DNA of 64,000 nt from Tahibacter soli (lineage in GTDB: Bacteria; Pseudomonadota; Gammaproteobacteria; Xanthomonadales; Rhodanobacteraceae), in NCBI RefSeq assembly GCF_025717065.2, contig NZ_JAOVZO020000001.1, positions 434,001 through 498,000 on the forward strand, written 5' to 3'. Positions 5,837 to 51,257 of this stretch are shown piece by piece. How positions within the stretch are numbered: the stretch's first letter is position 1; each line of letters opens with the position of its first letter. The position numbers and the translations under genes are program-made. The notes beneath the pieces were generated by a model. It saw only the letters and a list, made by a program, of their open reading frames with translations, searched no databases and was not told the DNA's origin.

Positions 5837-5860
5837 TACGAGTGGCGGTTGTGGAAAAAG

Positions 5861-5887
5861 AAAGGCCGGCGCAAGCCGGCCTTTTCG
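5861..5887 (+). terminator. Terminator of the Oar-like receptor gene
   Basis: AAAGGCCGGC and GCCGGCCTTTT form a perfect GC-rich hairpin with a short GCAA loop and a T run, 25 bp after the receptor stop codon. Confidence 0.85.
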
Positions 5888-5937
5888 TTTGCGTGCGATC
5901 GGCGCATGCTCTTCCGATCGTTCCCGGAGAAACCGCG

Positions 5938-6591
5938 ATGACGCCGCTGCTGTACGCCCATCCGTTCGCGTCGTACTGCCAGAAGGTGCTGATCGCGCTG
6001 TACGAGAACGCCACACCGTTCGATTTCAAGCTCGTCGCCACGCCCGACGACTTCGACGAACTCGGCAAGCTCTGGCCGTTCCGGCAGTTCCCGGTGCTCG
6101 TCGACGGCGACATGACGCTGATCGAGGCGACGATCGTCATCGAATACCTCGATACGTTCCGCCGCGGCGCGACGCGCTTCGTGCCGGATGACGCGAAGGC
6201 CGCGCTCGACGTGCGCTTCATGGACCGCTTCTTCGACAACTACGTGCACACGCCGATGCAGGCGGTGGTGTACGACGCGCTGCGCGCGGAACACGAGCGC
6301 GACCCGAAAGGCGTCGCCGACGCGCGCGACAAACTCGAGGCCGCGTATCGCTGGCTCGATCAGCGCATGGCCGGCCGCGAATGGGCGAGCGGCGAGACGT
6401 TCACGCTGGCCGACTGCGCGGCGGGCCCGGCGCTGTTCTACGCCGACTGGGTGCACCGGATCGATCCGGCGCACGCGAACGTCGTAGCGTATCGCGAGCG
6501 GCTCAATGCGAGGCCGTCGTTCAAGCGCGCGATCGACGAGGCGCGGCCGTTTCGGCCGTACTTTCCGTTGGGGGCGCCGGAGAGGGATTAG
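5938..6591 (+). CDS. Glutathione S-transferase family protein
   Basis: A 217-residue cytoplasmic GST. The N-terminal thioredoxin-like domain runs from LLYAHPFASYCQKVLIALYE through the cis-proline segment FRQFPVLVDGDMTLIEATIVIEYL. The all-helical C-terminal domain includes FTLADCAAGPALFYADWV, the conserved GST C-terminal core. In classes of this sort Ser or Cys near residues 11-13 (SYCQ) contacts glutathione. The ATG at 5938 sits after CCCGGAGAAA. The same frame is open far upstream through the receptor gene, so the start rests on this ribosome-binding site and on domain alignment. It lies beyond the receptor terminator, so it needs its own promoter. The substrate is unknown. Confidence 0.88.
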   Translation: MTPLLYAHPFASYCQKVLIALYENATPFDFKLVATPDDFDELGKLWPFRQFPVLVDGDMTLIEATIVIEYLDTFRRGATRFVPDDAKAALDVRFMDRFFDNYVHTPMQAVVYDALRAEHERDPKGVADARDKLEAAYRWLDQRMAGREWASGETFTLADCAAGPALFYADWVHRIDPAHANVVAYRERLNARPSFKRAIDEARPFRPYFPLGAPERD

Positions 6592-6649
6592 AGACCGCGC
6601 GTCACGTCGACCAAGGGATGGCAGAAACCGGATCGATCGCGTCGGCTCC

Positions 6650-7702: not shown

Positions 7703-7950
7703 CGGCCTCTCCGCCTGTCGGTTCCCTATTTTACGGGCCGCGTTCGGCGAACGCTCGGGCGGCGCCAGCACCCGCACCGACTCCTTCCACGAACCGTCAT
7801 CGCGCCGCCCGCAAACCGCCATGCCCGAACGATGTCATTGTCGCGCGGCACGCGCAGCTTGCGGGTTTGCGTTCGTTTCCCGACCATTGCCGCGTTTGTC
7901 GCTGTTTTCGGCGCCGCCTTGCGGCGCGGTTCGTTCACTCGGGGGAAGAC

Positions 7951-13959: not shown

Positions 13960-13996
13960 AAAAAGCCGCCGCCTCGCGCAGCGCCTCACGCGGTTC

Positions 13997-31797: not shown

Positions 31798-32376
31798 CTA
31801 GAACAATAGATAAGTAGACAGAATGTACTTGTCGCCGGAGCGCGGCGGCGGTGCCTCGTGCTGGTACATCCAGTACGGCGGAAACATCAGCAGGCGTCCG
31901 GCGCGCGGACGCACGACGACGTCGAGATCGGGAAAGCGCGTTTCGCCGCCTTCGGCGATGTCGTTGAGATACCACAGAAACACGAGATAGCGGTTCGCCG
32001 CTTCGTTGATCGAATCGAAGTGCAGCTGAAAGCGTTCCTCGCGGTCGGGCCGGTAGCGTTTGATCACGAGCTCGGCGATGCGCGGCGACGGCGGCACCGG
32101 AATGGACAGTCCGATATCGGCGTTGTAGCGCGCGAGCGCTTCCTGCATGCGGCCCAGCAGAAAACCCTTGAAGCCGGCATCGGACAGCGGCGAGATGTCG
32201 AGTTCGGTCCACGCGCTGTCGTCCAGGCCCGCACGGATGCCGCGCCCGTTGCCGCGCTGGAAGCGCGCGAGTCCTTCGAACGATGCGATCAGCTGCGCGC
32301 ACAGGTTCGCGTCGAACGCGTCGTCGTAAACCCGCAGATAGTGGCGCAGATCGCGCCGGTCGGCCTGTGCGTTCAC
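31798..32376 (-). CDS. 2OG-Fe(II) oxygenase, prolyl-4-hydroxylase-like
   Basis: A 192-residue oxygenase of the P4Hc type. The iron ligands are HFD (His119 and Asp121) and His173 in YQHEAPPP; Lys183 in SGDKYILSTYL is placed to bind the 2-oxoglutarate carboxylate. There is no signal peptide, so it acts in the cytoplasm. The GTG start overlaps the stop of the TPR-sulfotransferase gene (GTGA), so both are translated together. Homologues hydroxylate prolines or other peptide residues, but small-molecule substrates are also possible. It is the last gene of the minus-strand modification operon. Confidence 0.85.
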   Translation of the reverse strand: MNAQADRRDLRHYLRVYDDAFDANLCAQLIASFEGLARFQRGNGRGIRAGLDDSAWTELDISPLSDAGFKGFLLGRMQEALARYNADIGLSIPVPPSPRIAELVIKRYRPDREERFQLHFDSINEAANRYLVFLWYLNDIAEGGETRFPDLDVVVRPRAGRLLMFPPYWMYQHEAPPPRSGDKYILSTYLLF

Positions 32377-34199
32377 GGCGGGTCGAGGTCGCGATAGCCC
32401 CAGCGTTCGAAATACGGTCGCAGCACGGGCAGCGCCGGCGCGAGCCATGCGGCATAGGCCTGCGCGCGGCCGACCGCGCGCGCGTTGATCGGTTCGATCA
32501 CCTGGGTATAGCTCGGCGTCGAGATGTAGCCGCGCTTGCGCGCGTGCTCGTGGAAGCGCAGTACGGCGTCGTCCCACGGAAGGTCGAGGAACTCGATGAG
32601 GCGTCGCGCGTGCGTTTCGACGTCGGCGACGAGGTCTTCGTAGCGCAGTTCGAACACGTCGGGCTGCAGCACCTCGCGCTGACCGATCCAGAAATCCATC
32701 GCGTCGGCATAGCCGCGCGCGGTGGATTCGACCGTCTCGCACATCGCGACGAACGCCGGCGAGTTGAACGACTGCATGTAGTTGCTGACGACCGCGTCGG
32801 CCGGATGGCGCAGCATCAGGACGATCTTCGCGTGGGGCCAGAGTCGGCGGATCAGCGGCAGCTTCAGGAGATTGAGCGGGTTCTTGTCGACGAGCCGCTG
32901 GCCGTCGGCGAGCGTGACGTGGCGCGCGACGCGCTCGGCGTAGACCGCGCGCAGCGCGTCGCACTGCGCGGCGGTGAGCCGGCCGAGATCTTCGGGATAC
33001 TCGAGCTTCTGCGCCTGCATGTCCTCGATCACGCGCTGCAGGAACGGCCGTTCGTCCATGCTCGCGAGCATCGGATGCGCGTCGAGCATCGTTTCGAGCA
33101 TCGTGGTGCCGGAGCGCGGGAAACCGACGATGAAGATCGGGCTCGCCCCGCGCGCGGGCGCGCCGGCGTCGTCGGCCGGCCATTGCGCGTACTGCTCGGG
33201 CGTGAGGCTGTGGCGCGTGATGCGAAACGGCGAGCGGCCTTCGAACATGTAGGGCATGCGCTCGCGCAGCGGTGCCGCCTGCAGCCGGTGCGCCGTTTCG
33301 AGCGCGCGCATCGCCGCGGCATGGTCGCCGAGCTTGTCGCAGACTTTCGCGAGCGAAAAGTTCAGATGGAAGTTCGCGAACGCCACCGTGCCGGTCGAGA
33401 TCAGCTCTTCGTGCAGGCGCCGCGCGGCCGGCAGGTCGTCGCCGCGCGACGCGAGCGACGCGCGCAGGATCGCGAGGTCCTCGCCGACCGCCGACGGCAG
33501 CGCCGGATGCCGCGACAGTTCGTGGACGATCGCCCACGCCTGGTCGAGACGATTGGAGCGCTCGTGGATCGCGCCCTGGCGCACGAGGACGCGCGGATGA
33601 TCGGGCGAGGCGGCGGCGGCCTGCGCGAGTGCGAGCTCCGCGTCGGCGATCTTGCCGAGACGAAACATCAGCCACGCCGCTTCGGCGAACGTCGACGGAT
33701 CGGCCTCGCGCCATTCGCGCCAGTTGTCGGTGAGCGTTCGCGCCAACCGCTTGTCGTTGTTTTCGAGCGCGGCGATCGCGCAGTAGGTGCGGATTTCCGG
33801 ATCGTCAGGTTCGAGCGCGATCGCCTGCTCGAGCGCACGGAGCGCGTCGGCCGCGTTGCCGGCATCGAGGTCGTTCAAGCCGATGTTGAAGAGCAGGCCT
33901 GCCTGTGGGCCGGTGAGCCGGAGCGCGCGGGCGAAGGCCGCGGTGGCATCTTCGAACCGGCGCACGTCTCGTAGCGCGTTGCCGAGGTTGCTCCAGTATT
34001 CGTAGACGTCCGGTTCGTTCTGCGCGAGCTGCGACAGTAGCGGAATCGCTTCGCGCGAGCGGCCCTGCGCCTGCAGCGACAGCGCGAGCACGAGCGCCGC
34101 GTCGACGTTGCCGTCGTCCTGCGCGAGCAGCTGCCGGCACGCGTGTTCGGCGCGCGCAAACTGGCCGTTCTGGAAAAATGCGAAAGCCGCTTGCGACAT
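32373..34199 (-). CDS. TPR-containing sulfotransferase (first paralog)
   Basis: A 608-residue two-part protein. Residues 1 to about 310 are tetratricopeptide repeats (for example YWSNLGNALRDVRRFEDATAAFARAL). Residues 340-600 are a PAPS-dependent sulfotransferase with the phosphosulfate loop FIVGFPRSGTTMLE, the 3'-phosphate segment KIVLMLRHPADAVVSNYMQ, and a terminal TPSYTQVIEPINARAVGRA typical of this bacterial family. It would transfer sulfate to a substrate recruited by the TPRs. The ATG at 34199 has GGAG at a workable spacing; an in-frame ATG 30 bases earlier lacks one. A diverged paralog lies at 36069. Confidence 0.9.
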   Translation of the reverse strand: MSQAAFAFFQNGQFARAEHACRQLLAQDDGNVDAALVLALSLQAQGRSREAIPLLSQLAQNEPDVYEYWSNLGNALRDVRRFEDATAAFARALRLTGPQAGLLFNIGLNDLDAGNAADALRALEQAIALEPDDPEIRTYCAIAALENNDKRLARTLTDNWREWREADPSTFAEAAWLMFRLGKIADAELALAQAAAASPDHPRVLVRQGAIHERSNRLDQAWAIVHELSRHPALPSAVGEDLAILRASLASRGDDLPAARRLHEELISTGTVAFANFHLNFSLAKVCDKLGDHAAAMRALETAHRLQAAPLRERMPYMFEGRSPFRITRHSLTPEQYAQWPADDAGAPARGASPIFIVGFPRSGTTMLETMLDAHPMLASMDERPFLQRVIEDMQAQKLEYPEDLGRLTAAQCDALRAVYAERVARHVTLADGQRLVDKNPLNLLKLPLIRRLWPHAKIVLMLRHPADAVVSNYMQSFNSPAFVAMCETVESTARGYADAMDFWIGQREVLQPDVFELRYEDLVADVETHARRLIEFLDLPWDDAVLRFHEHARKRGYISTPSYTQVIEPINARAVGRAQAYAAWLAPALPVLRPYFERWGYRDLDPP

Positions 34200-34308
34200 G
34201 CCGTGGGACTCCGATGGATGCGTCGGCAATTATCGCGACGGGACGATCGATGCGCCAACGCAAAGCGTCGCGGCCGATCCGGATTGCGCGTTCGGGCAAC
34301 GCACGGCG

Positions 34309-35292
34309 CTACATCGCGGCGCCGGCGCGGCCCGAGCGCTCGTCCGCGAGGTTCGTGCGGCTCTCGTCGATCACCGCGACGTCGCAGACGAGATGCTGGA
34401 TCGCGAGCTGCGCGCCGATGCCGTTGTGGAGGAAGATGTTCGGCGCGAGATTGCGCAGTTCGACGCGAAAGCGGTCGACTTCGGCCCGATATTCGGGCCA
34501 GCCCGCGCGATCTTCGCCGTAGCACGCCCACAACGCCCGCCAGCGGCGGCAAAAATCGGCAATGTGGAAATGCAGCACGTCGAGCTGCGGGTGATCGCGC
34601 GCATCCTCGAGCACGAAGATCAGATGCTCGCGCACTTCCCACGGCGTCATGACGGCGGGCAGATTGACCGATTCGTACCGCAGTTCGGCCGGCCCCCCGT
34701 CAGGCGCGACATGGCGCGCGCGCCAGCCGGGCTGGTCGAGGCCCGGCACGCGTCCGGCGCTCACCAGCGGCCAGAAGCCCGGGCCGCCGACCGTGTCGGC
34801 GACGAGGTGGATGCGTGCGCGCGTGTCCGAATTGACCACCTTGTGACGGCGCCACGTGTCGAAGATCCAGCATTCGCCCGCAGCCATGTGCAGGTCGCTG
34901 TCGCCGCAATGAAACCGCACTTCCGGCTGCGTCACGATCGGCACGTGGACCCGAATGTGTTCGCGCCAGTAGTAGTCGATGTCGACGTGCGGCGTGACCT
35001 CGGCCTGGCCCGACAGGCGCATCAGGCGCGAGCGGCCGAGCGTCGCGCCGAACGATGCGAGCACCTGGCGCAGGTACGGAAGCCGCGCCAGATGCGGCGT
35101 CGGCCGCATCGGGCCGCGCACGGCGTCGTCGCCGGGGTCGCCGCCGACCGCGATCAGCGGCACCGCGGAATTGCCGGCGAAGCCCTGCGGGTGAGGCCGC
35201 CATGCCGATTCGCCGAGCTGCTCGATCTCAGCCGCGAGCGCCGCCGCGTCGAAGCTCAACGGAAGTTGCAGAAACGGAACCTGGAGTTTCAT
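34309..35292 (-). CDS. Aspartyl/asparaginyl beta-hydroxylase-like oxygenase
   Basis: A 327-residue protein of the AspH/PF05118 double-stranded beta-helix. Its motifs are EVTPHVDIDYYWREHIRVHV (His102), RFHCGDSDLHMAAGECWIFD and RRHKVVNSDTRARIHLV (His150, with an Arg for 2-oxoglutarate). This family uses two histidines and no carboxylate to hold iron, as seen here. An extra C-terminal region of about 130 residues is not assigned. It lies between the two TPR-sulfotransferases in a run of modification enzymes. The start is the ATG at 35292, divergent from the small sulfotransferase. The substrate is unknown. Confidence 0.85.
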   Translation of the reverse strand: MKLQVPFLQLPLSFDAAALAAEIEQLGESAWRPHPQGFAGNSAVPLIAVGGDPGDDAVRGPMRPTPHLARLPYLRQVLASFGATLGRSRLMRLSGQAEVTPHVDIDYYWREHIRVHVPIVTQPEVRFHCGDSDLHMAAGECWIFDTWRRHKVVNSDTRARIHLVADTVGGPGFWPLVSAGRVPGLDQPGWRARHVAPDGGPAELRYESVNLPAVMTPWEVREHLIFVLEDARDHPQLDVLHFHIADFCRRWRALWACYGEDRAGWPEYRAEVDRFRVELRNLAPNIFLHNGIGAQLAIQHLVCDVAVIDESRTNLADERSGRAGAAM

Positions 35293-35460
35293 GGCGCGTG
35301 CGTTCGGTAACGTTCGGGTCGAACGCCGATAGTAGTGCGCCGACCCGCAGGTCGTCGAACGTTCCCGCGGGCGCCGCGCAGCGGGATCGATGCGCACGGG
35401 CTCCGCCCCATCGCGGAGCCTGTGCGAGAATTCGCCGATTGCCCCGATTCGCCGCCGCCC

Positions 35461-36087
35461 GTGATCATTTCGCACAGTTCCCGCTACGTTTTTTTCGCGG
35501 TGCCGAAAACCGGCACGCATTCGATCCGCCGCGCGCTGCGACCGCAGCTCGCCGATGGCGACATGGAGCAGGTCGGCCTGTTCGTCGACAAGCGCTTTCC
35601 GTATCCGGCGCTGGCGAGCCTGGGCCACGGCCATGTGAGCTATCTGCAGGTCGCGCCGGTGCTCGGTTCGGTGCTCGACGACTATTTCAAGTTCGCGTTC
35701 GTGCGCAATCCGTACGACCGCTTCGTGTCGTACTGCGCGTTCATGGCGCGCAACGGCGACGCGTTCGCGCAGCGGCCCGGAGACGTCATGCGTTTCTTCA
35801 TCCGCGACAATCCGCAGCTCGATCATCTGCTGTTTCGCCCGCAGTACGAGTTGCTGGCCGACGAGAGCGGGCAGGTGCGCATGGATTTCATCGGCCGCAG
35901 CGAGCGCTCGCAGGCCGATTTCGACGCGATCTGCGCGAAGGTCGGCATCGCCTCGTCGCCGCTGGAGCAGGTCAACAGCACGCAGCACCGGCACTACGCC
36001 GACTACTACGACGACGAACTGCGCGGTCTGGTCGCGCGATTCTACGCACGCGACCTCGAGGCCTTCGGCTACGGGTTCGACGGGTAG
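35461..36087 (+). CDS. Small sulfotransferase-family protein
   Basis: About 208 residues. It carries the PAPS loop YVFFAVPKTGTHSIRRAL and the 3'-phosphate motif KFAFVRNPYDRFVSYCAFM of the sulfotransferase-2 (carbohydrate/HNK-1-like) family, so it is a different subfamily from the two TPR-sulfotransferases. The start is uncertain: GTG 35461 places the PAPS loop near the N-terminus as usual, but its ribosome-binding site is weak, and an upstream GTG at 35335 would add 42 residues. Its 3' end overlaps the convergent TPR-sulfotransferase by 19 bp. The acceptor is unknown. Confidence 0.82.
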   Translation: MIISHSSRYVFFAVPKTGTHSIRRALRPQLADGDMEQVGLFVDKRFPYPALASLGHGHVSYLQVAPVLGSVLDDYFKFAFVRNPYDRFVSYCAFMARNGDAFAQRPGDVMRFFIRDNPQLDHLLFRPQYELLADESGQVRMDFIGRSERSQADFDAICAKVGIASSPLEQVNSTQHRHYADYYDDELRGLVARFYARDLEAFGYGFDG

Positions 36088-37874
36088 TTCCAGCGTCGCA
36101 GATACGGTTCGAGCGTCGGCAGCACGCGCTCGAAATGGCTGCGGTAGCGCGTCCAGCGGCCGACGCCCTTGCGGTTGACCGGCTCGACCACCTGGCTGTA
36201 GCTCGGCGTGCCGATGAAGCCGCGCGTACGGGCGTGCTCGTGGAACGCCGTCATCGCGGGGTGGCGCGCAACGCCGAGAAAATCGGCCAGCGCGACAGCC
36301 GCGGCGTCGATATCGTCGACGAGGTCTTCGTGGCGCAGTTCGAACACGGCCGGTTCGAGCAGCCGGCAGTGGTCGAGCCACGCGTCGAACGCGTCGGCGT
36401 AGCCGCGCGCGGTCGATTCGAGCGTCGCGCACAGCGGCACGTACAGCGGTTCGCTGAACATCTGAAGGTAGTTGCTCAGCACGACGTCGCACGGGTGGCG
36501 CAGCGCGAGCACGATCCGCGCGTGCGGAAACACGCGCGCGATCATCGGCAGGCGCAGGAGGTTCAACGGATTCTTGTCGACGAGACGGCGCGACGCGTCG
36601 GCCTGCGTGCGGCTCGCGACGGTCGCGAAGTACTGCGCGCGCAATGCATCGAGGTCCGCGCGCGTCAACGCGCCGAGATCCTGCGGGTAGCGCAGCCCGC
36701 GCTGCTCGACCGCCGCGATCAGGTTCTGCACGAAAGGCTGTTCGTCCATCGTCGTCAGCGCGGGATGCGCGTCGAGCATGGTTTCGAGCAGCGTCGTTCC
36801 GGAGCGCGGAAAACCGACGACGAAGATCGGCGATGCCGCCGCGTCGGGCGCGCCGTCGTGCTGCCAGGTCGCGACGAGTTCCGGCGTCAGCCGGCGGCGT
36901 GTGATCGTCATCGTGTCGAACGACACGGCCTGCGGATGATCGATCGCGAGCTGCTTCATCTGCGCGGCGTGCGCGCGGTCCAGCATCGCCATCGCCGCGT
37001 CGGGCCTGCGCGCGCGGTCGTACAGGCGTGCGAGGCCGAACGCGATCGTCAGGTGGCGTTCGAGCGCGCCGGGCGCTTCGAGTATCGCCTCGTGCCGGCG
37101 TATCGCGTCGTCGACGTCGTCGCCGCGTGTGGCGACGAGCGCACGCACGACGGCGGCCTGTTCGCTCAGTTCCGCGGTATCGAGCGGACCCAGTCGCTCC
37201 AGCGCGGCTCGCGCTTCGGGTATGCGGTTGATGCGTTCGTACAGTTCGGCCTGGCGCAGCCGCACGCGCGGATCGTCGGGCAGTCGCCGCGCCGCGAGAT
37301 CGAGCGCGGCTTCGGCATCGGCCGTGCGCTCGACGCGCATCAGCGTCCATGCGACGTCGAGCAGCTCGCCGGGTTCGTTCGCGCACCACGTGCGCCAGCC
37401 GTCGAGCAGGCGCCGGGCCGAAGCGTCGTCGCCGACCGCGTGGCTCGCCTTCGCGGCCTGCGCGCGAATCAATGCGTCGTCCGGCGCGAGTTCGTAGGCG
37501 CGCATCAGAAATTCGAAAGCTTCCGGGTTGCGCTGTTGCGACAGCGCGATCAGTCCGAGATTGCGCAGCGCTTCAGATTGCGCCGGATCGATCGAGAGCG
37601 CGTCGCGATAGACGCGCTCGGCGTCGGCGTCGCGTCCGAGCAGGCGCAGCATCGCGCCTTGATTGATCCGATATTCCGCGACGCCGGGGCTCACGACCGC
37701 CAGCCGCTCGAAAGCGGCGAGCGCGTCGTCGTAGCGCGATTGCGCATCGAGACTCAGTGCGAGGACCAGCAAGGCTTCCTCGTCGTCGGGCAGGGTGGCG
37801 AGGGCGCGCCGCGCCGCCGCTTCGGCGGCGCGCGCATCGCCGGACTGGAGCGCGTTGAAAGCGGATTGGAGCAT
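36069..37874 (-). CDS. TPR-containing sulfotransferase (second paralog)
   Basis: About 601 residues with the same order as the paralog at 32373. An N-terminal TPR array (to about 310) comes first. The sulfotransferase domain has VVGFPRSGTTLLE, RIVLALRHPCDVVLSNYLQ and TPSYSQVVEPVNRKGVGRW. Conserved intervening phrases (LVDKNPLNLL, STARGYADA) show the two arose by duplication and diverged well. The ATG at 37874 is preferred; a start 21 codons earlier would begin inside the receptor terminator. It follows the TonB receptor on the same strand, 84 bp on, separated by that terminator. Confidence 0.9.
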   Translation of the reverse strand: MLQSAFNALQSGDARAAEAAARRALATLPDDEEALLVLALSLDAQSRYDDALAAFERLAVVSPGVAEYRINQGAMLRLLGRDADAERVYRDALSIDPAQSEALRNLGLIALSQQRNPEAFEFLMRAYELAPDDALIRAQAAKASHAVGDDASARRLLDGWRTWCANEPGELLDVAWTLMRVERTADAEAALDLAARRLPDDPRVRLRQAELYERINRIPEARAALERLGPLDTAELSEQAAVVRALVATRGDDVDDAIRRHEAILEAPGALERHLTIAFGLARLYDRARRPDAAMAMLDRAHAAQMKQLAIDHPQAVSFDTMTITRRRLTPELVATWQHDGAPDAAASPIFVVGFPRSGTTLLETMLDAHPALTTMDEQPFVQNLIAAVEQRGLRYPQDLGALTRADLDALRAQYFATVASRTQADASRRLVDKNPLNLLRLPMIARVFPHARIVLALRHPCDVVLSNYLQMFSEPLYVPLCATLESTARGYADAFDAWLDHCRLLEPAVFELRHEDLVDDIDAAAVALADFLGVARHPAMTAFHEHARTRGFIGTPSYSQVVEPVNRKGVGRWTRYRSHFERVLPTLEPYLRRWNYPSNP

Positions 37875-37895
37875 GAAGAGTTGCCGGATCGTCAA

Positions 37896-37928
37896 TGAAA
37901 AAGCCGCGTGGCTTGCGCCACGCGGCTT
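37896..37928 (-). terminator. Terminator of the second TonB receptor gene
   Basis: A perfect 12-bp stem (AAGCCGCGTGGC and complement) encloses TTGC. On the minus strand it is followed by TTTTT, 30 bp after the receptor stop. Confidence 0.85.
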
Positions 37929-37957
37929 GTATAGCACTACGAACTACGTTGCGGCGC

Positions 37958-40837
37958 TTAGAACTTCACGCCGACGCGAGCCCAGAAGTAGCGGCCCACG
38001 GTGTCGTACGTACGCTCGTCGGTATTGCCGTTGAAGCCGTACTGCCACAGCACCGGCGCCTGCTTGTCGAACACGTTGTCGATACCGAGTTCGACGTGCG
38101 TGTTGATCGGCTCGATGTTATAGCCGAGCTGCAGGTTGTGGTACGTGTAGGCGCCCGTACGGAACGAGTTGTGGCCGGCGTCGATCACCGGAGCGATGAC
38201 GTTGTAGCCCGACGGCGTCGAGATCGTATCGCCGAAGCGCGACGGACCGATGTAGCGAACGCGCCAGGACGCATCGAACGCGCCGAGGTTCCAGTTCAAC
38301 GCCGCGAGAGCGCGCCAGCGGGCAAAGTTGCCGTTGCCGCCGGTCGACGACGACTGGTACGAACCCGCGTAGTTGATCTGCGTCTCGATCACGCCCTGGA
38401 TGCTCTGCACGTTGTACTTCTGCAGATAGGTCGCATCGAGGCTCGCGCGGAAGTTGCCCCACGCGGTTTCCGGCAGACGGTACTTGAAGCCGATGTCGAT
38501 ACCCGAAGTGTCGATGCGGCCGACGTTCTGCGTCGTGTTGTTGACGAAGTTGACGTCGCCTGTCTGCGCTTCGCGCGTGAACAGGTTGCAGTAGTTGCCG
38601 TTGATGAAGCACTGGTCGAGGATGTTCTGCGTACCGAGCGCACCGATGGTGTCGGTGAGGTAGATGCGCCACACGTCGACCGACGTCGAGAAGCCTTCGA
38701 GCCAGTTCGGATCGTAGACGAAGCCCCACGTGAACGACTTGCCCTGTTCCGGCAGGACGTTGACGTTGCTGCCCTGCAGGGACTGCGTCTGCTGCGTCAG
38801 CTGCTGGAAGCCCGGCTGCAGGCCCTGGCAGGCCGGGTTGTTGACGTCGGCGGCGCTGAGGTTGTCGCAGGGATCGCGGTAGGTGTCGGCGCTCGGGGTG
38901 ATGCCGCCGTACAGGTCGGAGATCGTCGGCGAGCGGAACACTTCGGCGATCGTGCCGCGAATCAGCAGGTCGTCGATCGGGCGCCATTCGAGGCCGAGCT
39001 TCGAGTTCGTCGTATCGCCGAACGCGGAGTAGTCGGAATAGCGGCTGCCGAGCGTGAAGTTCAGCGACTTGGCGAGGAACACGTCACGCAGAACCGGGAT
39101 GAAGAACTCGGCGTAGACTTCCTTGACCGACAGTTCGCCGCTGTTCGGCGACGCGCACGCGTCGGTCGACGTCAAGCACTCGCCCGTGTTCGGGTTCGTG
39201 ATGAGCGAGGCGAAGTCCGGCTGGAAGTACTGATAGTCCTTGCGGTATTCGCCGCCGAGCGCGAGGCTCACGGCGCCGGCCGGCAGTTCGAACAGTTCGC
39301 CGGTGAGGTTGAACTGAGCGGTCTTCTCGGTCGCGTACGAGTGCGCGAACGGGGTGATCGCCAGCGCCTGCAGCGCTTCGAGGTTCGCACGGCCTTCCGG
39401 CGAGGTGCCGTCGGTCACGTTGAAGATGTTGATCGGCACGCAACCGGCGATGACCGCGCCCGGACGGCCGCAGCGCGCGACGCCGTCGGCGTCGTAGAAC
39501 GACGGGCCGACAGCGGCGGCCAGACCCGGCTTGTAGTAGTAGCCCGAGGACGAACGCGTCTGGTCGGTGCGCGCCCAGGTGATGCCCGCGTCCCACTGCC
39601 ACGTGTCGCCGAAGCTGCCGCGCAGGCCCGTGCTGATCTGGTCGGCCTGCGTCGAGAAGCGGCCTTCGCGATTGCCCGCGAGGACCGTACGCGTGCCGCC
39701 CGACGAGACGTTGACGCCGAACGGGTTGTAGATGCTGTCGGCCGAGACGATCGCGCCCGAGTTGATGCCGAGGATCAGCGGCAGCGGGGCGATGACGAAC
39801 TTCGAACGCGTCTTGTTCGTGAACGCTTCGACGTAGGCTTCGACGTTGTCGGTGATGCGGTAGTTGCCCGCCGCGAACAGGCCGGCGCGTTCGGTCGGCG
39901 TCAGTTCGAGGTTGTACGGCGAGTAGTCGTACGAGTCGTTGTTCGCGCCGCTGGCGACGTAGCAGCGGTAGTCGGTGGCGGCGGTGCCGCGCGTGCCGGA
40001 GATGCGCGTCACGTTGACGGTGGCCGACGTGCCCGGGCAGTTGATGCCCAGAGCGACGGCGCGCGAACGCGGAATGACCAGACGGCCGTTCGGCACGGAG
40101 CCCGAACCCAGCGCGAAGATGCTGGTGTTGCGGTAGTTGTACAGCGCCGGCGACGAGAACTCGCGCTCGCCCGCGCCGACCTGGCGCTGGCGGTTGTAGG
40201 TCATGCCGACCACGACGCTGCCGCGGTCGCTGGCATGGCCGAGGGTCATGCTGACGCCCTTGCGCTCGCCGTCGTCACGATCCGAGACGCCGTAGTCGAA
40301 CGAGGCTTCCAGGCCCTGGAAGTCGCGACGCGTGATGAAGTTGACCACGCCGCCGATCGCGTCGGAGCCGTACACGGCGGACGCGCCGTCCTTCAGGATT
40401 TCGATGCGCTCGACCATGTTGATGGGGATCGAGTTCACGTCGTTGTAGAACACGCGGTGGCCGTTGAGCAGCAGCAGCGTGCGCTGCGAGCCCAGGCCGC
40501 GCAGCGAAACGGTCGCCGCGCCGGAGCCGCCGCCGTTGTTCACGGACGGGTTGGTCGCCGCGCCGGCGATCGACGGGGCTTCCTGGAGCAGGTCGCCGAT
40601 CGTGACCTTACCGGTCTTTTCGATCGCGGACTTGTCGATGACGAAGACCGGGCTCGACGTTTCGAGATCGACGCGACGAATGCGCGAACCGGTGACGACG
40701 ATCGTTTCCAGCTTGTCGGTGTTCTCGCCGGCGTCCTGCGCGAATACCGGTGCGGCGCTGAGGCCTACAGCGGCCGTCGTGCCCACGTACAGGGCATAGC
40801 GCACGGCGCGCAGAAGCTCGTTGCTGTTTTGTCTCAT
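37958..40837 (-). CDS. TonB-dependent receptor (plug plus barrel)
   Basis: A 959-residue outer-membrane receptor. The signal peptide ends near APVFAQ, and a TonB-box-like LETIVVTGSRI follows. The plug contains VSLRGLGSQRTLLLLNGHRV and RIEILKDGASAVYGSDAIGG. The barrel closes on RVGVKF. The ATG at 40837 has GGAGAG at good spacing. It belongs to the class of large receptors that recognise sugars, peptides or other large molecules rather than classic siderophores. It stands next to the sulfotransferase/hydroxylase genes on the same strand, so its ligand may be what those enzymes act on; this is inference. The 5' region is AT-rich. Confidence 0.93.
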   Translation of the reverse strand: MRQNSNELLRAVRYALYVGTTAAVGLSAAPVFAQDAGENTDKLETIVVTGSRIRRVDLETSSPVFVIDKSAIEKTGKVTIGDLLQEAPSIAGAATNPSVNNGGGSGAATVSLRGLGSQRTLLLLNGHRVFYNDVNSIPINMVERIEILKDGASAVYGSDAIGGVVNFITRRDFQGLEASFDYGVSDRDDGERKGVSMTLGHASDRGSVVVGMTYNRQRQVGAGEREFSSPALYNYRNTSIFALGSGSVPNGRLVIPRSRAVALGINCPGTSATVNVTRISGTRGTAATDYRCYVASGANNDSYDYSPYNLELTPTERAGLFAAGNYRITDNVEAYVEAFTNKTRSKFVIAPLPLILGINSGAIVSADSIYNPFGVNVSSGGTRTVLAGNREGRFSTQADQISTGLRGSFGDTWQWDAGITWARTDQTRSSSGYYYKPGLAAAVGPSFYDADGVARCGRPGAVIAGCVPINIFNVTDGTSPEGRANLEALQALAITPFAHSYATEKTAQFNLTGELFELPAGAVSLALGGEYRKDYQYFQPDFASLITNPNTGECLTSTDACASPNSGELSVKEVYAEFFIPVLRDVFLAKSLNFTLGSRYSDYSAFGDTTNSKLGLEWRPIDDLLIRGTIAEVFRSPTISDLYGGITPSADTYRDPCDNLSAADVNNPACQGLQPGFQQLTQQTQSLQGSNVNVLPEQGKSFTWGFVYDPNWLEGFSTSVDVWRIYLTDTIGALGTQNILDQCFINGNYCNLFTREAQTGDVNFVNNTTQNVGRIDTSGIDIGFKYRLPETAWGNFRASLDATYLQKYNVQSIQGVIETQINYAGSYQSSSTGGNGNFARWRALAALNWNLGAFDASWRVRYIGPSRFGDTISTPSGYNVIAPVIDAGHNSFRTGAYTYHNLQLGYNIEPINTHVELGIDNVFDKQAPVLWQYGFNGNTDERTYDTVGRYFWARVGVKF

Positions 40838-41203
40838 TGCACTCTCCAACGTCAGAGTTGTGACACGGTTCGGGACTTTGCTTTTCCTTCCTGGAAATGG
40901 CCAAGGAACTACCTACCTATGCCTCGGCAGCGGCCGATACTAGCAACATTCGCAACGTGTTGGAATCCCTGTTGTATTCTTGCAACGAGTGTCTCGCGTT
41001 AACCGAAATTCAACCTTTACATGGTTGATGTTAAAAGGAAATTCTGCTTTTTCGCGTTGTTGCAAATGCGCCGTTTGCGGCGACGGTACGATACCGAAAT
41101 TGCGCAGTCGAGTGATCGGGCATGCGTCGGCCGGCGGCGTTTCGGAAGGCCGTCCGGACATCTTTCGAGGGGCTTGCGCGAGCGCGCGGAATATGCGTGG
41201 GGC
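40838..41203. other. AT-rich intergenic region upstream of the receptor
   Basis: I see no gene in these 366 bp. Base composition falls well below that of the surroundings from about 40860 to 41070, as expected of a promoter region for the minus-strand receptor. TTGCAAC (40980) and GTTGCAA (41059) form a separated inverted pair, and several CAAC/GTTG words lie between 40950 and 40990. No box can be assigned with confidence. Confidence 0.4.
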
Positions 41204-41228
41204 AAAAAAACCGGCGCGTCGGCGCCGG
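41204..41228 (-). terminator. Terminator of the outer-membrane-like protein gene
   Basis: CCGGCGC and GCGCCGG pair around GTCG. On the minus strand seven T residues follow, only four bases after the stop codon. Confidence 0.88.
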
Positions 41229-41231
41229 GGG

Positions 41232-42305
41232 TTACAGATCCTGGTGGTACTGCACGTAGGGGATACGTGCCTGCGCTTCGGCTTCCTCGCCGGTCAGCGG
41301 CGGGCTGGTCCACAGGTTCTGCGCACCGATGCTCAGGTCTGCGCGCCACGGCGTACGCCAGGTGACGCCGAGATCGAAGCCGGTCCAGCGCTGGCCCGGC
41401 GTGCCGCCGGGCGTCAGCGTGTTCGGGTTGTACAGGCGGCCGGTGATGCTCGTGCTCAGCGAATTGCTGGACAGGCCGAGGCTCAACGCGGTCTGCTGCC
41501 ATTCGGTGCGCGTGCCGGCGGCGTCGGGATTGAGGCGGATGCGGCCGAAGCTCGCGCCGAGATCTAGCGACTGCTCCGGCGAGAACGACCAGCGCCCGTG
41601 CGCACCGATCGCGCTCGAATCGCTGAAGCGCCACGCGTCGCGGGCCGGAATCACGAGACTCGGCAGCGTGCTGCCCGGCACGCTCAGCGTCGGCAGCGCG
41701 GAACTCAGGACCGGCGCGAACGTCGACGGAAGCGTCGGTTCGAGCCAGCTCAGGCCGAGCCCGAGGTCGAACGCGAAATCGTCGTTGGCCCAGCCGGCAT
41801 TGAGGGTGCCGGCATACCAGGCGCCGGCCGAATACGTTGCGGGTGCGGTGCCGGCGAGGCAGTCGCCCGCATACGCGAGCTGCTCGAACCGCAGGGCGCC
41901 GCAGCCGGAAAAGCCGGCCTGGTCGGGTTCGGCCAGAATCAGCGGGGAAACGCCGAATCCGACCGAAACGTGGGAGTTCGCACCGATTCTCGCCGCGCCG
42001 ACCAGCGCCGTCGCGTCGACGAGCTGCCAGTCGAGCGCGCCGCCGACCTGCGGCGCTACCGGCTGCGCCAGCGGCGTCTGGCCGGGATTGGCTTTCGCCG
42101 CGGCGATCAGGATGCGGCCGTCGGGCGTGCTCCACATCGGCGTCAGGGACAGGTCGGCCGCGCCGCCGCCGGGACGCAGCAGGCTGTCGAGCAGCGCCTG
42201 GCGGGTCTGCTGTTGCGGATGGTCCGGCTCGAGCGCAAGCGACTGCGCCGCGGCCACGGAGGGCAGCAGAGCGGTCAGACTGGCGAAGAGCAGGGCCTTG
42301 CGCAT
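41232..42305 (-). CDS. Putative outer-membrane beta-barrel protein, hypothetical
   Basis: A 357-residue exported protein of no family I recognise. The signal peptide is MRKALLFASLTALLPSVAAAQ. The mature chain alternates short amphipathic strands rich in Gly, Ser, Trp and Leu (for example LGASFGRIRLN, WTGFDLGVTWRTPWRADLSIGAQNLW), which suggests a small beta-barrel. It does not end in the usual aromatic residue. It has two cysteines that could pair (GCGALRFEQLAYAGDC). The ATG at 42305 is chosen for the signal peptide. It has its own terminator and reads towards the receptor, so a link to the modification cluster is possible only by position. Confidence 0.65.
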   Translation of the reverse strand: MRKALLFASLTALLPSVAAAQSLALEPDHPQQQTRQALLDSLLRPGGGAADLSLTPMWSTPDGRILIAAAKANPGQTPLAQPVAPQVGGALDWQLVDATALVGAARIGANSHVSVGFGVSPLILAEPDQAGFSGCGALRFEQLAYAGDCLAGTAPATYSAGAWYAGTLNAGWANDDFAFDLGLGLSWLEPTLPSTFAPVLSSALPTLSVPGSTLPSLVIPARDAWRFSDSSAIGAHGRWSFSPEQSLDLGASFGRIRLNPDAAGTRTEWQQTALSLGLSSNSLSTSITGRLYNPNTLTPGGTPGQRWTGFDLGVTWRTPWRADLSIGAQNLWTSPPLTGEEAEAQARIPYVQYHQDL

Positions 42306-47723: not shown

Positions 47724-50700
47724 ATGAAACGTCATCGCCTTGCCGCGGCGATATCGCTGCTGACCGCGGCCGATATCGCGGGCGCCGCCACGCCGCGCGC
47801 GGTCGACGCGCAACCGGTCGAATCCGCCGCGCTGTCGGATGCGCGCATCGCCGATCCGAACCGGCTGCTGCTGCGCGCCGGTCTGATCGATCCGACGGTC
47901 GAGCGCGTCGACTACGCGCGCACCGGCGCCGCGGCCGACGTCGCGAGCGGCCGTTACGCACTCGTGCAGTTCGACGCCGGCGACACCGACGCGCGGGCGC
48001 GGCTCGAAAAGCGCGGCTATCGCATCGTCGGATACGTACCCAATCACGCGTACGTCGTCGAACTTGGGGGCGCGGCGCTCGACGCGCTGCGCACCGACGC
48101 GCGCGTGCGCTGGGCGGGCTGGTACCAGCCCGGCATGAAGCTCGATCCCGCGCTGTACGCCGACCGGCTCGCGTCGCTCGCGCGTGCGCCGCACGGCGGC
48201 TACGACATCGTCGTGTACGGGTTCGCGGGCGTCGCGGCCGAAGCGCTCGCCGGCGCCGCCGCGAAAATCGCCGGCGCGAACATCCTGCTCGTTTCCGCGC
48301 ACGAGACGTTGCCGAGCGTTCGCGTGAATATTCAACAAGCGCAGTTGCCCGCGCTGATCCGTGCGATGACGGGCGTCGAGGGCGTCGCGCACGTCGGCCA
48401 TTACCTGCAGCCCGAACCGTTCAACGCGGCATCCATCCCGACGATTCAAGGAAACAGCACGAGCACGTCCGCGTCGGGCACCGGCACGGTCGGGACGCCG
48501 ACGCCGCTGTGGGATCACGGCATCTTCGGCTCGGGCCAGATCGTCGCGGTTTCCGATTCGGGCGTCGATGCGAACGAGGCATGGTTCGTCGCGCTGAACA
48601 AGGGCGCCGGCACGGTCGCGGCGATCACGCCGTCGTCGTCGCCGCTGCCGCCGGCCGTGGGGCCGCTGTTTCCGGACAACAAGATCGTCGGGTACTGGGT
48701 GCAGCCCGGCGCTACCGCGAACGACAACACCGCGACGTGCCCGGGCGGCAATCCGACCGGCTATCACGGCACGCACGTCGCCGGGACGCTGGCCGGCGAC
48801 GCCGCCGGCACGTTCGGTGCGACGACGTACGTCGCTTCGACGCCGACCGCCGCCAATCACGAACTGGCCGACGGCATGGCGCCGAACGCGCAGATCCTCG
48901 TGCAGGACATCGGCAACGACACGACCGGCTGCCTCGCGGGCGGCGCGCTCAACGCGATGCTGACCCAGACGGTGCGTGGCGGCGCGTACGTTCACAACGC
49001 GAGCTGGGGCTTCGCATCGGGCGGCGCGTACGGCGGGAACGATGTCGAAGCCGACCGCGGGCTGCGCGACAACGAAGATCTCCTGTTCGTCGTTGCGGCC
49101 GGCAACAGCGGGTCGGCCGCCGGCACGACCGGTTCGCCCGGCAACGCCAAGAACACCCTGACCGTCGCCGCGCTCGGCCATGCCGGCAGCACGTCGGTCG
49201 CGGGTTTCAGCAGCCGCGGGCCGACCGACGACGGCCGGCGCAAGCCCGATATCGCCGCCCCGGGCGTCAGCATCGTGTCCGCCGCGGGCGACTCGAGCAC
49301 GACGGCGACGATCGAGGCGCCGGTCGAATCGACGAAGCAGGGCACGTCGATGGCATCGCCGACGATCGCCGGCAACGCCGTGCTCGCGCGCCAGTTTTTC
49401 GCCGACGGCTGGTACCCGCGCGGCGTCAGGACCGTCGCCGATGCCTACAAGCCGAGCGGCATGGCGATGAAGGCGGTGCTGCTGAACGGCACGAACGCGA
49501 TCAGCGCGACGAACTGGAACAGCAACAGCCACGGCTGGGGCCGTGCGTGGCTCGATTCGAACCTGTGGTTCGCAACGACGCTGGCCGGCGGGAACGACGC
49601 GCGCCGGCTGCGTCTGTTCGAGCGGACGAACGCGGCCGGACTGCGCAGCGGCGAAACGCACGAATACCGCATCGAGGCCGTTGCGGCGGGCCAGGAACTG
49701 CGCGCGACGCTGGCCTGGTACGACGCGCCGTCGACGCTCGCGGCCGCCCTCGCGCTGACGAACAATCTCGACCTGGAAGTTGTCGGTCCGACCGGCACGA
49801 GCTACCTCGGCAACGTCTTCGCGAGCGGGGTATCGACCGCCGGCGGGACGGCCGACGTACGCAACACGGTCGAGCAGGTGCGTTTCACCGCGCCGGCGGC
49901 AGGCGCGTATACCTTTCGCGTGAAAGGCGCGAGCGTGCCGGGCGACGCCGGGGGCAACGGCGCCTCGGCCGTGCGGCAAGGCTACGCGCTGGCGGTTTCC
50001 GGCGCGTTCGGCCTGCCGAATCCCGCTGCGTTTCCGGCACCGGTGCCGACCGCGGCGACGACGGTCGGCGACACGGCGCAGATCGCGTTCACCGCCGCGG
50101 CCGGCGCGCAGGGCTTTCAGCTGTACCGCGCGAACGGCACCTGCGCGACCGCCGGCGCGGGCGACTTCCGCCTCGTCGCGACCGGCGCTGCGAGCCCGCT
50201 CGTCGACACGGCGGTCTACGGCGGCTACGCGTACGCATACAAGCTGCGCGGCGTATCGGGCGATGTCGAAGGAGACGCCTCCGCGTGCATCGATCACGTG
50301 TCTACCGCCGCCTGCGCGCTGGCGCCGACGTTCGACCGCAACGGCGTTGCGGTGACCGATACGCAGGGCGCGAACTGTCACGTGGCGCTCGCCTGGTCCG
50401 CGGGTGCTTCGAACTGTCCCGCCCAGTCGCTCGCCTATCGCATCACGCGCGATACGAGCCTGGCGTTCGCGGCGCCGACCACGCTCGCGGCGAACCACCC
50501 GGTGCCGTCCTATGACGATACGAGCGTCGCGTTCGGCACGCCGTACTACTACCGCGTGGAAGCCGTCGATGCCGGCGGCAACGCGTCGGCGCCCGGCCCG
50601 GTGCTGGCGACGTCCGCGATCGGTCCGAACGGGCTGGCCGGCGACGCCTATCGCGACGACGCCGAAACCGCGATCTATGCGCTGAGCCGGCATCCCTGGC

Positions 50701-51257
50701 ACGTCAGCGCCGCACAGGCGTCCACGGCGGGCGGACGCAGCTACTTCGCCGGCACCGAAGGTTCGACGTACCCGGCCAACGTCTGCGCGGCGATCACCAC
50801 GCCGAGCCTGCGGGTGCCTTCCGGCGCGACGCTGAGCTTCAAGGCGCGGTACGACCTCGAGTTCGAATGGGACGGCATGGTCATGGAGATTTCGACCGAC
50901 GGCGGCACGACCTGGACCGACCTTCCGCCGGACGGCGGCTATCCGAGTTCGTTCCGGCAGACGGTCGACAACAACGCCTGCGGCTTCCCGACGACGCAGG
51001 GCGCGTTCAGCGGCGTTTCGACGGCCGCGAACAACGCCGATCCCGGCAACGGCACGGCGGCCGCGGTATTCAAGCCGTTCGCGCGTTCGCTGTCGGCGTA
51101 TGCGGGGCAGACCGTGAAGATCCGTTGGCGCCTGTCGACCGACGGTGCCAGCGAATACGAGGGCGCGTACCTCGACGACATCTCGCTCGGCGGCACCGTC
51201 GTCGACCGGCTGTTCTCCGACGGATTCGACAGCGGCGGGATGCCGGCTTGCCACTAG
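47724..51257 (+). CDS. Secreted S8 subtilisin-like peptidase with C-terminal modules (copy A)
   Basis: A 1177-residue extracellular protease. After the signal peptide (about 1-22) and a propeptide-like domain (to about 250) comes the subtilase domain, with Asp278 (SDSGVD), His348 (YHGTHVAG) and Ser542 (GTSMASP). Next come a jelly-roll P/pre-peptidase-like part, a fibronectin-III-like domain (about 760-860) and a MAM/immune-inhibitor-A-like domain with FEWDGMVMEISTDGGTTW. The chain ends in RLFSDGFD plus a short tail. It is followed by a near end-to-end paralog, with catalytic residues offset by one. The ATG at 47724 follows AGGGAGAA. It probably degrades external proteins. Confidence 0.92.
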   Translation: MKRHRLAAAISLLTAADIAGAATPRAVDAQPVESAALSDARIADPNRLLLRAGLIDPTVERVDYARTGAAADVASGRYALVQFDAGDTDARARLEKRGYRIVGYVPNHAYVVELGGAALDALRTDARVRWAGWYQPGMKLDPALYADRLASLARAPHGGYDIVVYGFAGVAAEALAGAAAKIAGANILLVSAHETLPSVRVNIQQAQLPALIRAMTGVEGVAHVGHYLQPEPFNAASIPTIQGNSTSTSASGTGTVGTPTPLWDHGIFGSGQIVAVSDSGVDANEAWFVALNKGAGTVAAITPSSSPLPPAVGPLFPDNKIVGYWVQPGATANDNTATCPGGNPTGYHGTHVAGTLAGDAAGTFGATTYVASTPTAANHELADGMAPNAQILVQDIGNDTTGCLAGGALNAMLTQTVRGGAYVHNASWGFASGGAYGGNDVEADRGLRDNEDLLFVVAAGNSGSAAGTTGSPGNAKNTLTVAALGHAGSTSVAGFSSRGPTDDGRRKPDIAAPGVSIVSAAGDSSTTATIEAPVESTKQGTSMASPTIAGNAVLARQFFADGWYPRGVRTVADAYKPSGMAMKAVLLNGTNAISATNWNSNSHGWGRAWLDSNLWFATTLAGGNDARRLRLFERTNAAGLRSGETHEYRIEAVAAGQELRATLAWYDAPSTLAAALALTNNLDLEVVGPTGTSYLGNVFASGVSTAGGTADVRNTVEQVRFTAPAAGAYTFRVKGASVPGDAGGNGASAVRQGYALAVSGAFGLPNPAAFPAPVPTAATTVGDTAQIAFTAAAGAQGFQLYRANGTCATAGAGDFRLVATGAASPLVDTAVYGGYAYAYKLRGVSGDVEGDASACIDHVSTAACALAPTFDRNGVAVTDTQGANCHVALAWSAGASNCPAQSLAYRITRDTSLAFAAPTTLAANHPVPSYDDTSVAFGTPYYYRVEAVDAGGNASAPGPVLATSAIGPNGLAGDAYRDDAETAIYALSRHPWHVSAAQASTAGGRSYFAGTEGSTYPANVCAAITTPSLRVPSGATLSFKARYDLEFEWDGMVMEISTDGGTTWTDLPPDGGYPSSFRQTVDNNACGFPTTQGAFSGVSTAANNADPGNGTAAAVFKPFARSLSAYAGQTVKIRWRLSTDGASEYEGAYLDDISLGGTVVDRLFSDGFDSGGMPACH

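What the first reader, a model, noticed from the sequence alone, without database searches (positions are those of the whole stretch)
31798..42305. Hydroxylase and sulfotransferase cluster beside a TonB receptor: candidate undescribed modification system
Five unusual enzymes sit together: a P4H-like 2OG oxygenase (GTGA-coupled to a TPR-sulfotransferase), an AspH-like oxygenase, a small sulfotransferase and a second TPR-sulfotransferase. A TonB receptor and an orphan outer-membrane-like protein follow. Iron and PAPS motifs look intact. The set suggests hydroxylation followed by sulfation of a peptide, glycan or receptor-linked ligand. The joint role is inference; individual families are established.
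Basis: partly seen in the sequence, partly recalled or inferred. Interest (0 to 1): 0.82.

Follow-up and report, generated by a model that had tools for sequence, protein, structure and literature searches.

The report
Receptor-linked hydroxylase and sulfotransferase gene module
Next to a gene for an outer-membrane uptake receptor, this bacterium carries enzymes that look built to add hydroxyl and sulfate groups to a protein, and many related bacteria keep the same kinds of genes together, so they probably form one working system whose target is still unknown.

Summary
The genes are as described: a P4H-type oxygenase GTGA-coupled to a TPR-sulfotransferase, an AspH-like oxygenase, a second TPR-sulfotransferase, a TonB receptor (TBDR) and an outer-membrane-type protein on the minus strand; a small sulfotransferase on the plus strand. 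The set recurs. Of 80 loci fetched with a P4H profile (itself built mostly from sulfotransferase-linked P4Hs), 76 have a TPR-sulfotransferase within 6 kb and 67 a TBDR within 5 kb; of the 57 with 5 kb on both sides, 56 and 53, and 30 carry an AspH-type gene too. Hydroxylases and sulfotransferases pair in three ways, including AspH-sulfotransferase fusions. The TPR-sulfotransferase's catalytic domain matches protein-tyrosine sulfotransferases best (E about 1e-19); the TPR-AspH of related loci matches AspH chains (about 1e-27). TBDR and TPR-sulfotransferase distances correlate (r = 0.85, 74 pairs). I infer TPR-guided hydroxylation/sulfation of a protein, most likely the TBDR itself. The substrate is not shown: no residue is exclusive to linked TBDRs and no shared peptide gene was found. 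Ten searches of open-licence papers found no description of the module.

The parts
31798..32376 (-). P4H-type 2-oxoglutarate/Fe(II) oxygenase, 192 aa, GTG start, GTGA-coupled to the upstream TPR-sulfotransferase
   Evidence: PF13640 E 3.7e-11; H119-x-D121, H173, K183 invariant in 16 of 16; best solved relative a prolyl 4-hydroxylase chain, 3itq, E 2.7e-8
32373..34199 (-). TPR-sulfotransferase 1, 608 aa; N-terminal TPR repeats, C-terminal protein-tyrosine-sulfotransferase-like domain
   Evidence: PF13469 E 1.4e-40 plus TPR; C-terminal domain best hits are protein-tyrosine sulfotransferases, E 9.6e-20 to 5.1e-18; PRSGTT, E383, R464, S472, S563 in 40-41 of 41
34309..35292 (-). AspH-like (PF05118) oxygenase, 327 aa; in related genomes the same family is fused to a sulfotransferase domain
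   Evidence: PF05118 E 5e-15; H102-x-D104, H150, R160 invariant in 12 of 12; fusions
35461..36087 (+). small sulfotransferase, about 208 aa, GTG start by homology
   Evidence: PF03567 E 8e-14; PKTGTHS and RNP invariant in 5 of 5
36069..37874 (-). TPR-sulfotransferase 2, 601 aa, directly downstream of the TonB receptor (83-base gap)
   Evidence: PF13469 E 4.8e-36 plus TPR; same gene order in genus-mates G001, G002, G003, G006 and beside the receptor in G005, G007
37958..40837 (-). TonB-dependent receptor, 959 aa, of the kind most often found beside these TPR-sulfotransferases
   Evidence: PF07715 E 1.1e-24, PF00593 E 1.2e-35
41232..42305 (-). outer-membrane-type protein related to XOO1806_fam, an optional neighbour
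   Evidence: NF052276 E 7.7e-24, below cut-off; within 8 kb of P4H in 13 of 80 loci

Best explanation
It is a conserved gene module that pairs a TonB-dependent receptor with TPR-guided modifying enzymes. SHOWN by sequence and synteny: the genes recur together, the enzymes keep their catalytic residues, and the receptor and its TPR-sulfotransferase have parallel histories. INFERRED: the enzymes act in the cytoplasm; the TPR superhelix of the sulfotransferase (and, in relatives, of the TPR-AspH oxygenase) holds an extended protein segment; the P4H and AspH-type oxygenases hydroxylate side chains; the TPST-like domain transfers sulfate from PAPS to a tyrosine or to a newly made hydroxyl. INFERRED, less certain: the client is the receptor pre-protein, modified before export, which would put sulfated or hydroxylated residues on its plug or surface loops and tune ligand recognition.
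For: TPR-sulfotransferase within 6 kb of P4H in 76 of 80 loci and TBDR within 5 kb in 67 of 80; 56 and 53 of the 57 with 5 kb on both sides. With the window's P4H alone as query, 18 of 29 P4H places in 200 genomes of the order lie within 5.1 kb of a TPR-sulfotransferase match (18 of the 22 that score over 200 bits, 0 of the other 7; hit lists, a lower bound). From the sulfotransferase side, 29 of 40 fetched loci have a TBDR within 600 bp (28 on the same strand), 33 of 40 within 3.5 kb. In the window's genome, 8 of the 13 other TBDR matches were looked at: none has a TPR-sulfotransferase next to it. TBDR/TPR-sulfotransferase distances correlate at r = 0.852 over 74 pairs (largest of 2000 permutations 0.099) and paralogue matching agrees in 31 of 36 comparisons. 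The catalytic domain is TPST-like, while the sulfotransferase half of an AspH fusion is not (polyketide-type chains first, TPST at 3.7e-4). The hydroxylase domain of TPR-AspH matches AspH chains at about 1e-27. Three hydroxylase-sulfotransferase pairings. PAPS supply: two strong APS-kinase matches, E 3.5e-58 and 6.8e-58.
Against: No column is exclusive to linked receptors (98 linked, 26 unlinked): of 22 columns that differ, none is Tyr or Asp; six could be hydroxylated or carry a hydroxyl (T79, P88, N101, N135, T343, S717; 90-95% of linked), but 27-50% of unlinked receptors have them too. The window's AspH-like enzyme resembles free-proline hydroxylases, and TPR-AspH also resembles the lipid hydroxylase models OlsC and LpxO (107.8 and 71.1 bits, far below cut-off). 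P4H with TPR-sulfotransferase occurs without a nearby TBDR in L214, L215 and L256, and P4H without either in L282. One genus-mate (G004) has the OMP-TBDR pair with no TPR-sulfotransferase within 1.5 kb. In other classes, 11 of 16 fetched stretches have no TBDR match and one has it 7.4 kb away. The P4H profile was built mainly from P4Hs taken from sulfotransferase loci, which favours linked copies. Modifying a 960-residue barrel before export has no precedent that I know of.
Confidence: 0.42

Rival explanations
1. The enzymes make a hydroxylated and sulfated peptide or secreted protein that is the ligand or signal read by the TonB receptor, in the manner of RaxST in Xanthomonas oryzae.
For: TPST-like domain; RaxST is reported as an active tyrosine sulfotransferase in vitro (PMC4216712, passages seen); receptors often sit beside genes for their ligands (general knowledge).
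Against: No small peptide gene shared by the loci: the one recurrent small secreted family is in 6 loci, and the 4 of these shown are Steroidobacter-type records. No exporter or peptidase among the seven genes.
Confidence: 0.22
2. The enzymes modify a small molecule or lipid: either one imported by the receptor (trapping or detoxifying it) or a membrane lipid such as lipid A or an ornithine lipid.
For: PF05118 relatives include free-proline, OlsC and LpxO hydroxylases; the AspH-fused sulfotransferase is nearest to polyketide-type enzymes.
Against: TPR repeats on the sulfotransferases and on TPR-AspH point to protein clients; the main sulfotransferase is TPST-like, not CurM-like.
Confidence: 0.22
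3. The genes are unrelated neighbours gathered by chance.
For: In G002 the set is split: OMP-TBDR-TPR-sulfotransferase-AspH on one contig, P4H, TPR-sulfotransferase and small sulfotransferase on another. AspH-family proteins of fusion size also occur without TBDR or TPR-sulfotransferase around them (L039-L044; fusion shown by Pfam in L039, L040, L041).
Against: Counts, and the mirror-tree result.
Confidence: 0.05

Closest known systems
Protein-tyrosine sulfotransferases TPST1/TPST2 (animal enzymes, recalled)
   Same: Best solved relatives of the catalytic domain, over about 225-250 residues; PRSGTT loop and an aligned invariant Glu (E383) kept, S-x-x-Q-V-x-x-P motif mostly kept
   Different: Bacterial, no signal peptide seen by eye, fused to N-terminal TPR repeats, beside a TonB receptor; activity not tested
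RaxST-RaxX-RaxAB of Xanthomonas oryzae (RaxX recalled)
   Same: A Xanthomonadales sulfotransferase with reported tyrosine-sulfating activity in vitro (PMC4216712, passages seen)
   Different: The present module has TPR repeats, 2OG oxygenases and a TonB receptor, and no shared small gene or exporter; RaxST itself was not aligned here
AspH (TPR plus PF05118; acts on EGF-like domains)
   Same: The TPR-AspH partner in related loci has both kinds of domain, and its hydroxylase domain matches AspH chains at about 1e-27
   Different: It lies in related loci; in the window's genome its counterpart is on another contig (L380:9541-10902), and the window's own AspH-like gene is a more distant family
TPR~sulfotransferase architecture listed in 2005 (PMC554113, one passage seen)
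   Same: Same domain kinds, in M. loti and X. axonopodis (XAC3051)
   Different: Listed only as an architecture; no receptor or hydroxylase link in the passage seen

Membership tests
Protein-tyrosine sulfotransferase (TPST type) | PAPS 5'-loop PRSGTT and 3' Arg/Ser | tested here: met
   P361 R362 S363 G364 T366 R464 S472 in 41 of 41, T365 in 40
Protein-tyrosine sulfotransferase (TPST type) | Catalytic Glu and the C-terminal Ser of TPST (roles recalled) | tested here: met
   E383 and S563 align with a Glu and a Ser of the TPST chains and are in 41 of 41
Protein-tyrosine sulfotransferase (TPST type) | Sulfates tyrosine in proteins | not testable with these tools
   needs an assay
Prolyl 4-hydroxylase family | H-x-D...H iron site and 2OG-binding Lys | tested here: met
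   H119, D121, H173, K183 invariant in 16 of 16
Prolyl 4-hydroxylase family | Hydroxylates proline in peptides | not testable with these tools
   needs an assay; nearest solved relatives are P4H and LH3 chains
AspH (aspartyl/asparaginyl beta-hydroxylase) | PF05118 domain | tested here: met
   56.1 bits over the 22.6-bit cut-off
AspH (aspartyl/asparaginyl beta-hydroxylase) | Closest to true AspH by sequence | tested here: not met
   Window protein: 1e5r and 4p7w first. The TPR-AspH of a related locus does meet it
RaxST-RaxX-type peptide system | Small precursor peptide gene in the cluster | tested here: not met
   No small family shared by the loci among 969 ATG-started ORFs of 25-160 aa
RaxST-RaxX-type peptide system | RaxAB-like peptidase/ABC exporter | tested here: inconclusive
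   None among the seven Pfam-scanned genes; genes farther out were not Pfam-scanned
TonB-dependent receptor | Plug and beta-barrel | tested here: met

The most novel reading that the evidence does not exclude
Bacteria of several orders (and some of another class) carry a cytoplasmic counterpart of the eukaryotic secretory-pathway trio (prolyl hydroxylase, AspH, tyrosine sulfotransferase) that decorates outer-membrane TonB receptors, so that a receptor surface is chemically tuned by hydroxylation and sulfation before export.
Probability: 0.28. Interest if true: 0.9.

Novelty: new variant of a known kind. Interest (0 to 1): 0.7.

Why it matters
To my knowledge sulfation of bacterial proteins rests on very few cases and TPR-sulfotransferases mostly lack assigned substrates. 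A module that ties TPST-like, P4H-like and AspH-like enzymes to one receptor type, in common environmental and plant-associated genera, gives a concrete candidate client and a simple test (receptor mass spectrometry with and without the neighbour gene). If the receptor is modified, this is a new layer of control of outer-membrane uptake; if a ligand is, it is a new class of sulfated signal or nutrient handle.

Tried and rejected
Chance clustering: rejected for TBDR, TPR-sulfotransferase and P4H. Peptide precursor: 969 ATG-started small ORFs around 80 loci gave families that I read as antisense of known genes, as ordinary neighbours, or (6 loci) as one small secreted family of which the 4 loci shown are Steroidobacter-type. 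Receptor acceptor site: no exclusive column, no Tyr; six partly discriminating Thr/Pro/Asn/Ser columns remain as weak candidates (98 linked of 860-1020 aa against 26 unlinked: 7 from the window's genome, L213 dropped by length, and 19 judged unlinked only within 1.5 kb). Mirror-tree set: 89 pairs, cut to 74 by dropping receptors under 8% different. One search used a wrong reading frame and is ignored; one search replaces it. In one search the AspH and TPR-AspH counts were mixed (one query held antisense of the small sulfotransferase, others were methyltransferases); one search replaces them. My gene caller missed some sulfotransferase genes, so counts come from tblastn or six-frame HMM searches. 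In one search locus G139a was scored on another ORF; its receptor is adjacent. Of the 47 sulfotransferase matches, 40 were fetched as wide stretches; the window's two, G002:C7 and G050 were seen elsewhere; G070, G145 and G178 were not looked at. Of 37 sulfotransferase matches in other classes, 26 were held as short loci (2 show a TBDR within 1.5 kb) and 16 were fetched wider, chosen by me and including the three that had already shown a TBDR or oxygenase neighbour.

Literature: ten searches (one search was rejected for a sign in a term) in open-licence PMC papers gave no description of the module; subscription papers and preprints were not covered. Papers seen: passages only of PMC554113, PMC9346353 and PMC4216712; all others as search listings.
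Full report
OBSERVATION. The seven genes exist as reported and their families are confirmed by Pfam and NCBIfam. Order on the minus strand: OMP-type protein, TonB receptor (TBDR), TPR-sulfotransferase 2, AspH-like oxygenase, TPR-sulfotransferase 1, P4H-type oxygenase; the small sulfotransferase lies on the plus strand between TPR-sulfotransferase 2 and the AspH-like gene and starts, by homology, at GTG 35461. The P4H start overlaps the sulfotransferase stop (GTGA). Catalytic residues are kept: P4H H119-x-D121/H173/K183 in 16 of 16; AspH-like H102-x-D104/H150/R160 in 12 of 12; TPR-sulfotransferase PRSGTT, E383, R464, S472 and S563 in 40-41 of 41; small sulfotransferase PKTGTHS and RNP in 5 of 5.

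RECURRENCE FROM THE P4H SIDE. A scan of one genome per species (84,980 species) with a 16-sequence P4H alignment gave 116 relatives; the best 80 were kept with up to 10 kb on each side. Fourteen of the 16 sequences came from loci fetched round TPR-sulfotransferases, so the scan favours linked copies. Record titles name Xanthomonas, Stenotrophomonas, Pseudoxanthomonas, Lysobacter, Luteimonas, Dokdonella, Dyella, Tahibacter, Steroidobacter, Peristeroidobacter, Solimonas, Nevskia and Hydrocarboniphaga among others. By tblastn: TPR-sulfotransferase within 6 kb in 76 of 80 (within 1.5 kb in 72 of 80), TBDR within 5 kb in 67 of 80; of the 57 loci with at least 5 kb on both sides, 56 and 53. Any PF05118-type oxygenase within 8 kb: 42 of 80 (31 of 57). 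P4H, TPR-sulfotransferase, TBDR and AspH-type together: 35 of 80 (30 of 57). The small sulfotransferase of the window: 3 of 80, a fourth at 8.05 kb. XOO1806-type protein within 8 kb: 13 of 80. Well-flanked loci without TBDR: L214, L215, L256, L282; without TPR-sulfotransferase: L282.

A LESS SELECTED COUNT. With the window's P4H alone, 24 of 200 genomes of the order have a match at E <= 1e-20, in 29 places. Set against the sulfotransferase matches in the same 200 genomes (E <= 1e-60, six candidates scored per genome, so a lower bound), 18 of the 29 lie within 5.1 kb of one: 18 of the 22 that score over 200 bits and 0 of the 7 weaker ones. Linkage thus belongs to the close P4H relatives.

RECURRENCE FROM THE SULFOTRANSFERASE SIDE. 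In 200 genomes of the order, 33 have a match at E <= 1e-60, 47 places. Forty loci were fetched as stretches of up to 20 kb: TBDR within 600 bp in 29 of 40, 28 of them on the same strand; within 3.5 kb in 33 of 40; P4H within 4.5 kb in 15 of 40. The shortest form is therefore TBDR plus TPR-sulfotransferase, with P4H and other oxygenases added in part of the loci. Controls: the window's genome has 13 other TBDR matches; the 8 strongest were looked at and none has a TPR-sulfotransferase next to it, though one has a weaker relative with five genes between. In 30 TBDR loci from the window's genome and 24 relatives, 8 (the window's included) have a strong TPR-sulfotransferase match within 1.5 kb and one more a weak match. 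A close receptor paralogue of the genus (about 55% identical) has none in the 6 genus-mate loci looked at, nor in the window's genome, so linkage looks like a clade property. One genus-mate (G004) has the OMP-TBDR pair with no TPR-sulfotransferase within 1.5 kb.

CO-INHERITANCE. For 74 adjacent pairs, TBDR and TPR-sulfotransferase distances correlate at r = 0.852 (2000 permutations: sd 0.027, largest 0.099). Nine genomes with two such pairs allow 36 comparisons; the receptor and the sulfotransferase prefer the same matching in 31. Shared descent inflates the first number; the second is less affected but its comparisons are not independent. In a number of Xanthomonadaceae-type loci the set lies beside the same flanking genes as in the window (labelled by eye as PEPCK and HslO types), which speaks for vertical inheritance. 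In G002 the set is split over two contigs.

HYDROXYLASE-SULFOTRANSFERASE PAIRING. Three forms: (a) P4H beside TPR-sulfotransferase; (b) AspH-like domain joined to a Sulfotransfer_3 domain, shown by Pfam in L039, L040, L041, L045, L046 and L248 and, as fused or abutting on one strand, in 20 of 80 P4H loci; (c) a small AspH beside a small sulfotransferase in 16 of 80 loci (the 230-aa sulfotransferase is so named from its motifs by eye, since Pfam gave no hit). A further partner of about 421-437 aa is TPR plus PF05118 (E 1e-38 to 1e-48 in 5 of 5 scanned); its hydroxylase half finds a match within 8 kb in 41 of 80 loci. In L266 a 636-aa protein joins methyltransferase, TPR and AspH domains.

WHAT THE ENZYMES RESEMBLE. 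The catalytic domain of TPR-sulfotransferase 1 has seven protein-tyrosine sulfotransferase chains as its best PDB matches (E 9.6e-20 to 5.1e-18), then CurM at 1.4e-7. As a contrast, the AspH-sulfotransferase fusion of L248 has polyketide-type chains first (4gox 2.8e-8, CurM 4.2e-6) and TPST at 3.7e-4, so TPST likeness is not a property of every sulfotransferase here. The hydroxylase domain of the L224 TPR-AspH matches AspH chains at about 1e-27 but the protein also matches OlsC and LpxO models below cut-off. The window's AspH-like protein matches free-proline hydroxylases. The P4H matches a prolyl 4-hydroxylase (2.7e-8) and LH3 (2.3e-4). The genome has APS kinase to make PAPS.

BEYOND THE GROUP. 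In 299 genomes of the phylum, 35 match the TPR-sulfotransferase profile at E <= 1e-60; 37 of the 45 places listed are in other classes. Sixteen of these, chosen by me, were fetched with wider flanks: 4 (L357, L358, L359, L363) have TPR-sulfotransferase, a PF13759 or PF05118 oxygenase (TPR-linked in L357 and L358; no TPR hit seen in L359 and L363) and a TBDR together; 11 have no TBDR match and one has it 7.4 kb away. The module therefore recurs in part outside the class, but the sulfotransferase also lives without it.

MECHANISM. Shown: intact enzyme motifs, TPST-like and AspH-like relationships, recurrent linkage to one receptor type. Inferred: cytoplasmic action on an extended protein, because TPR repeats recur on sulfotransferases and on several oxygenases and I saw no signal peptide by eye (no predictor was run); hydroxylation and sulfation acting on one client, because of the three pairings. 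The client is most likely the receptor, being the commonest non-enzyme partner and the sole one in the two-gene form. Against this, no column is exclusive to linked receptors and none of the 22 that differ is Tyr; T79, P88, N101, N135, T343 and S717 are commoner in linked ones (90-95% against 27-50%) and are only weak candidates. No peptide gene is shared. I put about 0.42 on TPR-guided protein modification with the receptor as client.

NOVELTY. The single families are known and a TPR~sulfotransferase architecture was listed in 2005 (PMC554113, one passage). Ten searches of open-licence papers found no description of the module. I rate it a new variant of a known kind (enzymatic protein sulfation/hydroxylation), with a bolder reading left open.

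Noticed in passing
L381 (own genome, C23:353000-372900), 768-11465: A 2461-aa ORF that reads like a peptide synthetase (by eye) is followed by oxygenase-size genes; three PF05118 matches of the genome lie in this stretch, so this is a separate use of the family.
   Followed up: partly
L380 (own genome, C9:68000-87900), 9541-14375: A TPR-AspH of the window's genome (PF05118 E 1.2e-46) sits beside a long TPR-rich ORF, away from the receptor locus.
   Followed up: partly
L266:10584-12494: Methyltransferase, TPR and AspH domains in one 636-aa protein; a similar 680-aa protein in L272 was not scanned.
   Followed up: partly
L045:7422-10433, L046:9479-12655, L048:8211-10445: AspH-like and sulfotransferase domains fused to DUF4915 (L045, L046); in L048 Pfam shows only DUF4915, behind a BLAST-level AspH-like match.
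   Followed up: partly
L222:6430-6846, L224:6434-6871, L223:6424-6855: Small secreted-looking proteins with a C-terminal Cys motif beside AspH-sulfotransferase fusions in Steroidobacter-type loci; a possible client.
   Followed up: no
window 47724-51257 and 51663-55124: Two neighbouring ORFs of about 1150 aa with similar N-terminal stretches (DARIADPNRLLLRAGLIDP and DARVADKRLLLLRSGLVDP), perhaps a tandem pair.
   Followed up: no
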